Shown in pieces: positions 51,795-55,055 of a stretch of DNA of 64,000 nucleotides. The notes below the pieces were generated by a model, which worked only from the letters and a program-made list of their open reading frames with translations, was not told where the DNA came from and ran no database searches. The translations under genes and the position numbers were made by a program. The stretch covers positions 62,001 through 126,000 of the forward strand of contig NZ_FOXI01000006.1 of the NCBI RefSeq assembly GCF_900115675.1, written 5' to 3'. Numbering within the stretch: position 1 is the first letter of the stretch; every line of letters starts with the position of its first letter. Source of the DNA: Halolamina pelagica. Its GTDB lineage: Archaea; Halobacteriota; Halobacteria; Halobacteriales; Haloferacaceae.

Positions 51795-51877
51795 GGCCAG
51801 AACCGGCCGCGGGCGCCGCGGTCGGCGAAGAGAAAGCCTTAACAGATACGCCGGCCAACGACTGAATGCGCTCACCT

Positions 51878-51951
51878 GGGCCAATAGCTCAGTTAGGTTG
51901 AGCGCTCGGCTGATAACCGGGAGGTCCGCGGTTCAAATCCGCGTTGGCCCA
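51878..51951 (+). tRNA. tRNA-Ile (anticodon GAT), used as integration target
   Basis: A 74-nt cloverleaf. The acceptor GGGCCAA pairs with TTGGCCC with discriminator A, the D-arm contains AGTTAGGTTGA, the anticodon loop CTGATAA places GAT at 51912-51914, and the T-arm has the loop TTCAAAT. No intron. Its 3' end is repeated at 54948-54969, marking the attachment site of an integrated element. Confidence 0.96.
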
Positions 51952-51952
51952 T
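51931..51952 (+). repeat. attL: tRNA-Ile 3'-end core repeat
   Basis: The 22-bp sequence beginning GTTCAAATCCGCG and ending GGCCCAT is identical to 54948-54969. It covers the T-arm and acceptor 3' strand of tRNA-Ile, the usual crossover region for archaeal tyrosine integrases. Confidence 0.85.
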
Positions 51953-52292
51953 ATCCCAATGCGGTCGGCATTTAGCCGTCGCGTGTTGGGGGCTGACTCC
52001 TCCCCAGCCACCTAACTTCGTTCCTACTTACCCTGAGAGAAACGTCCATTTTCGGTTAGCTTCGACCGCACCTCTCCCGCCCCTTATCGGTGTCCACCAG
52101 TTAGATTTGCTGATTGGTCGTTTCAGGGCGAAAATACTAATCTTGTTGAAACCCATTAGTTCGGTACCCCAGTACTGAAATAGCCGGTGAGTGGGATTGC
52201 TTTCTAACCGCTCTTGGGTTTTTGTTCAGCTACTGTAGTGTTTGTACTTCCAACAGTTCCTTCAGGCTTGGATAGGAATGGTCGATTAACGA
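51953..52292. other. 340-bp left end of the element, no gene seen
   Basis: This non-coding stretch between attL and the lipoprotein gene contains AT-rich patches (for example GAAAATACTAATCTTGTTGAAA near 52133-52150 and a T-rich run near 52215) that could be promoters. Its first 70 bp resemble the chromosomal sequence to the right of attR. Confidence 0.5.
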
Positions 52293-53696
52293 ATGAGGCG
52301 CCGACGTTTCCTCCGTCACGGGGTCATTGCCGGAGTCACCGTCTCCATCGCCGGCTGTAACACAAAGACGGGTACGCCAGACGGCGAGTCGGATACATCG
52401 ACGCCCGGGGCTGACGAAACACCGGAGGACACCGCTACATCTGCAGAACAGACACCTTCGGAAGGTGAACAGCAGCCCAGCGAAGATTCCGAACCAGCGG
52501 CACGGTACTTTTTCGAGGACGAAACCGGGGCACTCGGCCACCTCGCAGACGACGAAGTACCCCAAAACTACGACCACAGCATAACCAACTCTGCTACAGA
52601 GTCCGAATACCGGGAGATGCAGAGAAACGACCGCCAGTACCCGGAAGGACTGGAAGACGGACAGTTGACGATGACCGTCGACGAAATGATCTCCCGCGCC
52701 GAAGAGATCTACAACAACCCCGAAGAAAACATAGACACATTAGGATACGAAGACCTGAACTTCGCTGAGGAAGACGACGAAATAGTATTCACCCGGGCAT
52801 TGATCAAAGCATCACAGGAAGCAGGAGTGGCCAGCTCGGGACTGGCAAATATTGTCGTAGCAAACATCGCAGAAGACGCCGTCGACCAGATCCAACCCGG
52901 CTTCACTGATTTCAAACTATCAACTCTACCAGCAACTGAACCGATAGCACCCGGAAGACAGGGACACAGCGGAGGCGTAAGAGAGAATGACTTCAATCAG
53001 AGCTTCGGGAACTCCGGCTTTAGACATATGGCTGCCCTGCTCCAGTACGAGAAAGATGGAGAAACAGAACTCAAATACGCCGAACAAACTAACTCAGTAA
53101 ACGTAAATACATTTAGAAGAGTAATCAGGGATCCAGAGTTCTCGCTCTACCGCTCAAGCCTAGAACAAGATACTGTAGACAATGCAAGAGACTCAGAGCC
53201 TGGAGACGAGGGAACAATGTTCCCAGAACACTACGTCACAGCACTCGACTACACCAAAGCAAGAGAGCTAGAGAGTTCCGATGATAACATTCTTGGGTTC
53301 GGAGAAAACAAAAGCGGAACTCTTCTAGCTGTTGGAGATGAAATAGATGCAGTTTTGATGCAACTAGTAGATGATATGGGCGTCACAGGATACAATAATA
53401 ACGAAGACCTAGATCTTGAGAGTGCTAGACCTGATTGGGGAGGTACAGTAGTATCAGATGAATTTGGGGAAAGCCTAGAAGGGTATATCACTAGCCCAAC
53501 TAATAAGGAAAGACAATATCTAGAAAATATAGGAAGAGGACTATTCCAAATTAGAAACCAAGTGGGTATGAATGCCTCAATTGCGCTAACTGGTACGTTA
53601 GAAGATCCTGAAATTCTGCCTACAGATCAAGAGACAGTGAATGCAGTAAGACAGGATCAAGCATACGATCAGGTTCGAAAAAGAGTCCTCGCGTAG
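52293..53696 (+). CDS. Tat-exported lipoprotein, element cargo, unknown function
   Basis: A 467-residue protein. MRRRRFLRHGVIAGVTVSIAGC is a twin-arginine signal with lipobox SIAGC (Cys22), so it should be exported folded and lipid-anchored outside the cell. Residues 23-70 are a Thr/Glu/Ser-rich linker typical of haloarchaeal lipoproteins. The rest is an acidic globular domain with no motif I recognise. Base composition is GC-rich at the start and AT-rich from about 53000 on, suggesting a native-type signal joined to a foreign domain or recent transfer. A surface role such as exclusion of related elements or viruses is a guess. Confidence 0.85.
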   Translation: MRRRRFLRHGVIAGVTVSIAGCNTKTGTPDGESDTSTPGADETPEDTATSAEQTPSEGEQQPSEDSEPAARYFFEDETGALGHLADDEVPQNYDHSITNSATESEYREMQRNDRQYPEGLEDGQLTMTVDEMISRAEEIYNNPEENIDTLGYEDLNFAEEDDEIVFTRALIKASQEAGVASSGLANIVVANIAEDAVDQIQPGFTDFKLSTLPATEPIAPGRQGHSGGVRENDFNQSFGNSGFRHMAALLQYEKDGETELKYAEQTNSVNVNTFRRVIRDPEFSLYRSSLEQDTVDNARDSEPGDEGTMFPEHYVTALDYTKARELESSDDNILGFGENKSGTLLAVGDEIDAVLMQLVDDMGVTGYNNNEDLDLESARPDWGGTVVSDEFGESLEGYITSPTNKERQYLENIGRGLFQIRNQVGMNASIALTGTLEDPEILPTDQETVNAVRQDQAYDQVRKRVLA

Positions 53697-53793
53697 CGGT
53701 TAGTAGTTCACCTGTACTTACCGACTGAAGAGTATGGTTTATCCGCATCAGTTAGTTCCAACTGAGCCGAATATGTCCATACTCCAGTTAGTC

Positions 53794-54819
53794 CTAAATC
53801 GAATCCAAGTAATCACGTCGCTGTTCCGCCTTCTCCTGCTCACCTCGCCGGTCGTAATGCTTCTCCAGAACGTCGAGGCTCACGTTCATCCGGTCGCTGA
53901 CGATCTTCTCCGGCACATCTCCGGACAAGTGGTGGGTAATCGACCCTCGGCGAATCGCGTGCGGACTAACACTCGATGGGCAGGTACTCGCCTTGTTTCG
54001 GTCCATTGCCTCACAAGTGTCTATTTCGCGGTCGTGTGGACACTCACCTGTGTATTGGCAAGGACGAGTAATACGGTAGATGCTGTCCCGAAGTGAGGAC
54101 TTCGCCGGTCGTCCAGAGCGAGAGGTGAACAGTGGCTTGCGGTCGTGATCGTCGGCCACCTTATCGCGGCTATACGTGAGATACGCATCCAGCGCGTCAC
54201 ATACCTCGGGACTCAAAGAGACGTATCGCTCACCTGCCTCCTTGTTCTTTAGTCGGGTATCAGTCTCAGGGCGGTGGTGAAGCTCCACATACTGCTCCTC
54301 AGGGTCGTAGTCCCCTACGTTGAGGCCGTGGGCGGCTCCGATTCGCATCCCTGTATGCCACAGCAACTCCACGAGAGCGTGCGTCCGAGTCGAGAACTCG
54401 AACTTCCGGAGGTGGTTGATAAGCTGTTCCGCGGCGTCCTTATCGAGGAGTACCGTTCGTCGGTCCTCGTTCTTATCCAGCGATGGCATCAGGATTTTCT
54501 CGTGCGTACCGGGTGCGACGGCGTCGATGGTCTCACACCACTTGATGAACACCCGGAGCGTCGATAACTGCGTAACCATCGTGACGTTGTTGAGGTCGCC
54601 GTCGTCGCGCCGCCACATTTTGAATCGCTGGAGGTCACGCCCAGTCACTTCGTTCATATTGTCGATCTCCGCGACCGTATCGGTCCACTCAACGAAGTGC
54701 TTGAGTCTGTAGTGATGCGCTTGGATGGTGGATTCGGAGACTTCCTGTCTCCGCTGTTCAAGATACAGTTCTTTTGCCTCTGTCGGCTGGATGGGTTCGA
54801 GTTCGTCGTTTAGACTCAT
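53794..54819 (-). CDS. tyrosine recombinase (integrase)
   Basis: A 341-residue XerD/phage-type integrase with an N-terminal SAM-like DNA-binding domain (residues about 10-110) and a catalytic domain. The catalytic set is Arg159 (HTGMRIG), Lys193, His287-x-x-Arg290 (SPHAIRRGS), and nucleophile Tyr322 (LEKHYDRR). A Cys cluster at 254, 260, 269 and 280 (CQYTGEC, CEAM, CP) is an insertion seen in haloarchaeal phage and plasmid integrases and probably binds zinc. The gene is intact and lies 129 bp from attR. It should catalyse excision and integration at tRNA-Ile. Confidence 0.94.
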   Translation of the reverse strand: MSLNDELEPIQPTEAKELYLEQRRQEVSESTIQAHHYRLKHFVEWTDTVAEIDNMNEVTGRDLQRFKMWRRDDGDLNNVTMVTQLSTLRVFIKWCETIDAVAPGTHEKILMPSLDKNEDRRTVLLDKDAAEQLINHLRKFEFSTRTHALVELLWHTGMRIGAAHGLNVGDYDPEEQYVELHHRPETDTRLKNKEAGERYVSLSPEVCDALDAYLTYSRDKVADDHDRKPLFTSRSGRPAKSSLRDSIYRITRPCQYTGECPHDREIDTCEAMDRNKASTCPSSVSPHAIRRGSITHHLSGDVPEKIVSDRMNVSLDVLEKHYDRRGEQEKAEQRRDYLDSI

Positions 54820-54911
54820 TGCTGTCTCCGAATCCCGATGCGCTCGTTGAACCGCCTCCTTCCAATGTGCGCGTCAGGGGGCAACCGAATCTGCGGTGCG
54901 GTCCGGGCCGA

Positions 54912-54927
54912 GGGCGATTTATCGCCC
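54912..54927. repeat. hairpin next to attR
   Basis: GGGCGAT-TT-ATCGCCC is a perfect 16-bp palindrome with a 2-nt centre, 20 bp to the left of the attR core. It could be an arm site for the integrase or a terminator. Confidence 0.5.
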
Positions 54928-54947
54928 GAAGGCGCGGCGGTCCGCGC

Positions 54948-54969
54948 GTTCAAATCCGCGTTGGCCCAT
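54948..54969 (+). repeat. attR: duplicated tRNA-Ile 3' end
   Basis: Identical to attL (51931-51952) over 22 bp. To its left the match continues as GGTCCGCG with one extra C, so the two copies agree for about 30 bp with a single indel. To its right lies sequence similar to the start of the element. Confidence 0.85.
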
Positions 54970-55055
54970 CCAATTTCGGGCTGACTCCCCAGCCACCTAA
55001 CTTCGGCCGCTAACTCCCGAGAGAGGTCTCCGTCCGGACCGTTCGTCCGTCGCTC

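What the first reader, a model, noticed from the sequence alone, without database searches (positions are those of the whole stretch)
51878..54969. Minimal 3.0-kb integrative element in tRNA-Ile(GAT) with one lipoprotein cargo
A 22-bp direct repeat of the tRNA 3' end bounds an intact tyrosine integrase and a single Tat lipoprotein gene with foreign base composition. No replication or structural gene is visible. Such a small integrase-plus-one-cargo unit could be a satellite carrying a surface protein, for example for exclusion of viruses or other elements.
Basis: partly seen in the sequence, partly recalled or inferred. Interest (0 to 1): 0.6.

Follow-up and report, generated by a model that had tools for sequence, protein, structure and literature searches.

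The report
Two-gene tRNA island with swappable cargo
In a salt-loving archaeon, a 3-kb piece of foreign DNA made of one integrase gene and one surface-protein gene sits in an isoleucine tRNA gene; relatives carry the same integrase with other cargo and the same cargo with other integrases, so it is a very small mobile unit built from exchangeable modules, whose cargo function is still unproven.

Summary
A 22-bp copy of the tRNA-Ile(GAT) 3' end bounds 3,017 bp holding an intact tyrosine integrase and one Tat lipoprotein gene, and a congener has the empty site. The integrase is SNJ2-type (44.6% identical to SNJ2's over 99%). It belongs to an 11-member clade (support 100/100). Eight members are bounded by tRNA-Ile repeats, in elements of only 1.77-3.02 kb that mostly carry different cargo. 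The element is a mosaic. Its ends and integrase match a congener's tRNA-Ile element that carries another gene. Its cargo cassette (52176-53723) matches another congener's 3.09-kb element in tRNA-Ser, whose integrase is unrelated. Cargo codons 1-180 have dS 0.02-0.06 against 0.34 for the neighbouring chromosomal gene, so the cargo moved between species while the integrase tracks the chromosome. The same lipoprotein family also sits beside a third unrelated integrase (3.21 and 4.65 kb), and beside conjugation-type and replicon genes elsewhere. No virus or phage relative of the cargo was found. Exclusion of viruses or plasmids remains plausible but untested. A transglutaminase-like fold without catalytic cysteine is only a weak lead. 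Verdict: a new variant of a known kind, a replication-less tRNA island with modular cargo.

The parts
51877..51952 (+). tRNA-Ile(GAT), the integration target; its 3' end is now supplied by the element
   Evidence: ARAGORN and Rfam
51931..51952 (+). attL, 22-bp direct repeat
   Evidence: the repeat finder D4
51953..52112 (.). left backbone segment, including a copy of the tRNA-Ile 3' trailer; the aligned block 51828-52112 is 87% identical to the G074 tRNA-Ile element and its tRNA
52176..53723 (+). cargo cassette shared at DNA level (88%) with the tRNA-Ser element of congener G042, including about 117 bp upstream of the gene
52293..53696 (+). cargo gene: 467-aa Tat lipoprotein of unknown family, under purifying selection
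53804..54969 (-). right backbone segment (integrase and right end), 90% identical to the G074 element
53794..54819 (-). SNJ2-type tyrosine integrase, 341 aa
54948..54969 (+). attR, 22-bp direct repeat
54970..55010 (+). displaced original 3' trailer of tRNA-Ile, as in the empty sites

Best explanation
This is a minimal integrative element. Its SNJ2-type integrase recombines the element's attP with the 3' end of tRNA-Ile(GAT). The element carries replacement tRNA 3'-end and trailer sequence, so integration leaves the tRNA gene whole (shown by sequence). It has no replication or transfer gene, so it must move as an excised circle or as chromosomal DNA by another route: cell fusion/mating, vesicles, another element's conjugation, transduction or uptake (inferred). 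Cargo is modular: the middle of the element is exchanged by recombination while both ends and the integrase stay (shown by mosaic comparison; whether homologous or illegitimate recombination does this is not shown). The present cargo is a lipid-anchored surface protein from a family that recurs on unrelated integrative elements. Its most likely job is to block entry of competing viruses or conjugative elements (inferred, about 40%).
For: Direct repeats, intact integrase and empty site. SNJ2-type by 44.6% identity over 99%. Clade monophyletic at 100/100, with 8 tRNA-Ile-bounded elements of 1.77-3.02 kb and different cargo. Mosaic: backbone as in the G074 element, cargo as in the G042 element. 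dS of cargo codons 1-180 is 0.02-0.06 against 0.34 for the flanking helicase; integrase dS 0.378 against helicase 0.354. Same cargo family in bounded elements with three mutually non-alignable integrases. Cargo dN/dS 0.11-0.20, integrase 0.06. Cargo homologues beside a T4SS pilin and a VirB4-like ATPase (L036) and beside Orc1/Cdc6 plus a fourth integrase (L158).
Against: No excised circle or transfer has been observed. The integrase has diverged at the chromosomal rate between W and G074, so the backbone may be long resident rather than currently mobile. PADLOC finds no known defence protein for the lipoprotein. Several cargo homologues (L034, L038, L039, L041) have no neighbouring integrase. 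Exclusion is untested.
Confidence: 0.72

Rival explanations
1. Resident exchange platform: the integrase backbone no longer moves and is inherited vertically at tRNA-Ile; only the cargo is exchanged, by homologous recombination with other elements.
For: Integrase W-G074 dS 0.378 equals the flanking gene's 0.354, while the cargo is recent. The element's left-end trailer resembles the local host-lineage version.
Against: The congeners with the lowest helicase dS to W (G279 0.199, G391 0.294) lack the element, and G190 is empty. The integrase is under strong purifying selection with intact active-site residues.
Confidence: 0.25
2. Decayed remnant of an SNJ2-like pleolipovirus or integrated plasmid that has lost all but its integrase and one gene.
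For: The integrase family is used by pleolipoviruses, and SNJ2-type integrases outside the clade sit in larger elements.
Against: All 8 tRNA-Ile-bounded members of the clade are 1.8-3.0 kb, and nearly all carry intact cargo in the same place. One cargo family (A2) occurs only in three such elements among 392 genomes. Integrase dN/dS is 0.06. No viral gene remnants were found.
Confidence: 0.1
3. Virus satellite: a helper virus (pleolipovirus or tailed) packages the excised circle, and the cargo interferes with rivals.
For: Shares its integrase family with pleolipoviruses such as SNJ2 and HRPV9. Small size and surface cargo would fit vesicle-like virions (inference).
Against: No packaging, replication or regulatory gene, and no close relatives of integrase or cargo in IMG/VR or of the cargo in phage records.
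Confidence: 0.12
4. The cargo is a host-beneficial surface protein (adhesion, nutrient or ion binding, mating) rather than an exclusion factor.
For: Homologues exist outside bounded elements (L034, L041) and the gene is under purifying selection.
Against: Rare and patchy (8 of 170 genomes in the family at E 1e-15), and repeatedly tied to integrases.
Confidence: 0.35

Closest known systems
SNJ2-type tyrosine integrases of betapleolipoviruses (SNJ2, HRPV9, HHPV4)
   Same: Same integrase family by identity (44.6% over 99% to SNJ2), classical intact integrase, tRNA 3'-end target. The review PMC8371274 reports that IntSNJ2 is active without its accessory proteins.
   Different: No accessory Orf2/Orf3, replication or virion genes; the element is 3 kb instead of 17 kb; target is tRNA-Ile(GAT).
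tRNA-integrated genomic islands, including haloarchaeal islands that share only an integrase (PMC11078007)
   Same: tRNA target regenerated, displaced fragment marks the other end, low GC, patchy distribution, same integrase with different cargo.
   Different: Two genes only, and a cargo cassette traced at DNA level between two unrelated integrases at two different tRNAs.
Minimalist phage satellites (PICMI, PMC10803314) and tycheposons
   Same: Small integrase-bearing islands that depend on others for spread; PICMIs protect hosts from competing phages.
   Different: PICMIs encode excision and replication genes and are packaged by phages; none of this is encoded or shown here.
Exclusion proteins of conjugative elements and lipoprotein superinfection-exclusion proteins of phages (from general knowledge)
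   Same: Lipid-anchored surface protein on a mobile element; one homologue lies beside T4SS-type genes.
   Different: No sequence relation to a named exclusion protein found; function untested.

Membership tests
SNJ2-type integrase family | At least 30% identity over at least 60% of the protein to family members (criterion of PMC8371274) | tested here: met
   44.6% over 99% to SNJ2 integrase
SNJ2-type integrase family | Catalytic R...HxxR...Y | tested here: met
   R159, H287, R290, Y322; PF00589
tRNA-integrated genomic island | tRNA regenerated and displaced tRNA fragment at the far end, with empty sites in relatives | tested here: met
Phage or virus satellite | Replication/regulatory genes tied to a helper | tested here: not met
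   Only integrase and lipoprotein genes encoded
Phage or virus satellite | Packaging by a helper virus | not testable with these tools
   Needs virion preparations
Integrative mobilizable element | Relaxase gene | tested here: not met
   No relaxase gene; an oriT alone could not be tested
Exclusion protein | Blocks virus or plasmid entry into a carrier | not testable with these tools
   Needs experiment
Transglutaminase-like (papain-like) superfamily, for the cargo | Fold match and Cys-His-Asp site | tested here: inconclusive
   Two AlphaFold models (pLDDT 62 and 66.5); VIA best rows NAT, GdmF, vasohibin, menin, TglA at Z 4-4.8; no cysteine in the mature domain of 8 of 11 homologues; no profile match to transglutaminases

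The most novel reading that the evidence does not exclude
Haloarchaea host a class of two-gene integrative cassettes in which any of several unrelated integrases, each tied to its own site (tRNA-Ile 3' end, tRNA-Ser 5' end, a non-tRNA site), is paired with one of a shared pool of surface or membrane exclusion proteins and nucleases. Cargo is traded between backbones, making them the archaeal equivalent of swappable anti-virus/anti-plasmid cassettes with no genes for replication or transfer.
Probability: 0.35. Interest if true: 0.75.

Novelty: new variant of a known kind. Interest (0 to 1): 0.55.

Why it matters
It shows how little an integrative element needs: one recombinase, an attachment site that repairs its target tRNA, and one gene. 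It gives a clean natural case of cargo exchange between unrelated integrases. If the cargo proves to be an exclusion factor, these tRNA sites would be a simple place to search for new archaeal anti-virus or anti-conjugation proteins.

Tried and rejected
Virus relatives: no relative of integrase or cargo in IMG/VR, none of the cargo in phage records. Known families for the lipoprotein: none in Pfam, PHROGs or PADLOC and no PDB sequence relative. Foldseek against PDB and viral models gave nothing significant. VIA rows cluster on transglutaminase-like folds but with Z below 5, and profile-profile tests gave nothing, so this stays a lead. Inverted repeats at the cassette ends: none, so a transposon-like cassette is not supported. 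Rfam shows only the tRNA above threshold. Chance origin of the repeat was rejected because of the empty site. The attempt to read the original SNJ2 integrase paper failed because it is not held.

Full report
OBSERVATION. The 22-bp repeat GTTCAAATCCGCGTTGGCCCAT is present exactly at 51931-51952, inside tRNA-Ile(GAT), and at 54948-54969, 3,017 bp apart. Between the copies lie a 467-aa lipoprotein gene (52293-53696, +) and a convergent 341-aa tyrosine integrase (53794-54819, -). The integrase matches PF00589 and phrog_1 and keeps R159, H287, R290 and Y322. GC drops from about 0.70 to 0.42-0.56 inside. The window is a stretch of contig C14 of a 3.16-Mb haloarchaeal genome.

EMPTY SITE. Of seven genomes of the genus, G190 shows the upstream flank, the tRNA and the downstream flank contiguous, aligning across the deleted element. 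G279, G391 and G240 carry the tRNA with its original 3' trailer and other genes downstream (a bacteriorhodopsin-type cluster, or two genes of unknown function), not this element. G074 has a related element at this tRNA (below). G042 has no integrase there, but its trailer matches the left end of the G074 element.

INTEGRASE. Its best named relatives are SNJ2-type integrases: 44.6% identity over 99% to the integrase of Natrinema virus SNJ2, with HRPV9 and HHPV4 close behind. By the published criterion (PMC8371274) it belongs to that family. SNJ2's two recombination accessory genes are absent here, and the same review says the enzyme works without them. A maximum-likelihood tree of 54 such integrases puts the window's in an 11-member clade with 100/100 support. 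Eight of the 11 are bounded by tRNA-Ile(GAT) 3'-end repeats at 1,774-3,017 bp. L144 and L145 show similar att-like pairs in tandem arrays with a second integrase; L140 could not be bounded. Outside the clade, bounded elements run from 2.7 to 8.0 kb in tRNA-Tyr, -Phe and -Arg; larger ones would have been missed in the stretches fetched.

CARGO TURNOVER. Cargo inside the clade: this lipoprotein; a 143-163 aa coiled-coil/two-helix membrane protein family in three elements (L136, L142, L146); two small proteins (L138); an HNH nuclease plus a 227-aa protein (L141); a 506-aa protein in which I see a nuclease-like motif (L143; no family match); a related multi-helix membrane protein in L144 and L145; and nothing recognisable in L139. 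The membrane-helix and coiled-coil descriptions are my reading of the sequences, not a predictor's output. Cargo does not follow the integrase tree: closest sisters differ and one family appears in three separate places. That family was found in only those three genomes of 392.

MOSAIC STRUCTURE. Compared with the G074 element, identity covers 51828-52112 (87%) and 53804-54968 (90%) and stops in between. Compared with a G042 element, identity covers only 52176-53723 (88%). The G042 element is different: 3,092 bp between copies of CCACTCTGCCATCCCACCG, the 5' end of tRNA-Ser(TGA), with a 367-aa integrase that gives no significant alignment to the window's. Relatives of that integrase also sit at tRNA-Ser(TGA), three of them in bounded elements of 3.8-7.5 kb. 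A third pairing occurs in Halovenus aranensis (3,210 bp) and Halapricum sp. CBA1109 (4,650 bp), between copies of TGAGTGCCGAGGCC with a third integrase.

TIMING. The flanking helicase gene has dS 0.342 between the window genome and G042. Cargo codons 1-180 have dS 0.02-0.06, so the cassette moved between these species after they split; codons beyond 300 have dS of 1 or more, so the far end comes from another allele. The integrase compared with G074 has dS 0.378 against 0.354 for the helicase, so the backbone has aged like the chromosome. Both genes are under purifying selection: dN/dS 0.11-0.20 for the cargo, 0.06 for the integrase.

CARGO PROTEIN. It is a Tat lipoprotein with invariant or near-invariant motifs such as PEH(Y/F)xT. 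Homologues occur in few genomes. One lies beside a T4SS pilin (PF18895) and a VirB4-like ATPase (L036), and one beside Orc1/Cdc6 genes and a fourth integrase (L158). AlphaFold models are of middling confidence. Their best structural rows are mostly transglutaminase-like or papain-like enzymes, with Z under 5. The mature domain has no cysteine in 8 of 11 homologues and profile tests find no link, so a catalytically dead relative of that fold is only a lead.

MECHANISM. Shown: site, repeats, intact integrase, empty site, replacement tRNA trailer carried by the element, cargo exchange, selection on both genes. Inferred: excision as a 3,017-bp circle; movement by routes supplied by host or other elements; a surface role for the lipoprotein, most likely exclusion of competitors (about 40%). 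The main rival is that the backbone is a resident exchange platform rather than currently mobile.

VERDICT. The satellite label is not supported, and exclusion is possible but untested. What is new is the scale and modularity: two-gene tRNA islands that trade cargo between unrelated integrases.

Noticed in passing
window 51953-52030 and 54970-55015; alignment A4: tRNA-Ile(GAT) has a conserved 3' trailer with hairpin-like repeats (GGGCTGACTCCCCAGCCACCTAACTTCG); elements carry a lineage-matched copy, so the tRNA keeps a trailer after integration.
   Followed up: partly
L144:1361-5830 and L145:5900-9720: Tandem arrays: two SNJ2-type integrases facing each other around a membrane-protein cargo with partial tRNA-Ile att sequences between; L144 also has a transposase-like gene in the cargo.
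   Followed up: partly
L143:9062-12140: A 3.0-kb tRNA-Ile element carrying a 506-aa protein with a possible PD-(D/E)xK nuclease motif (ETDGLLFFEDSFWCIEIKSH); no family match.
   Followed up: no
L148:7076-9910: A 2.76-kb element in tRNA-Tyr whose left end holds an inverted copy of part of the tRNA (CTCTACAGTCGACTGCTCTACCAG).
   Followed up: no
L031:4474-5865: The Halapricum version of the third element carries two further lipoprotein genes beside the shared one.
   Followed up: no
L135:4972-6745: In G240 two unknown genes (339 and 250 aa) without integrase lie between tRNA-Ile and the helicase gene.
   Followed up: no
L137:4516-4595: G042's tRNA-Ile has a trailer nearly identical to the left end of the G074 element, possibly a scar of a lost element or the source of that end.
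   Followed up: partly
L133, L134 and L137, downstream of tRNA-Ile: In three congeners (G391, G279, G042) a bacteriorhodopsin and Bat-type regulator cluster appears to lie between tRNA-Ile and the helicase; it is absent there in the window and in G190.
   Followed up: no
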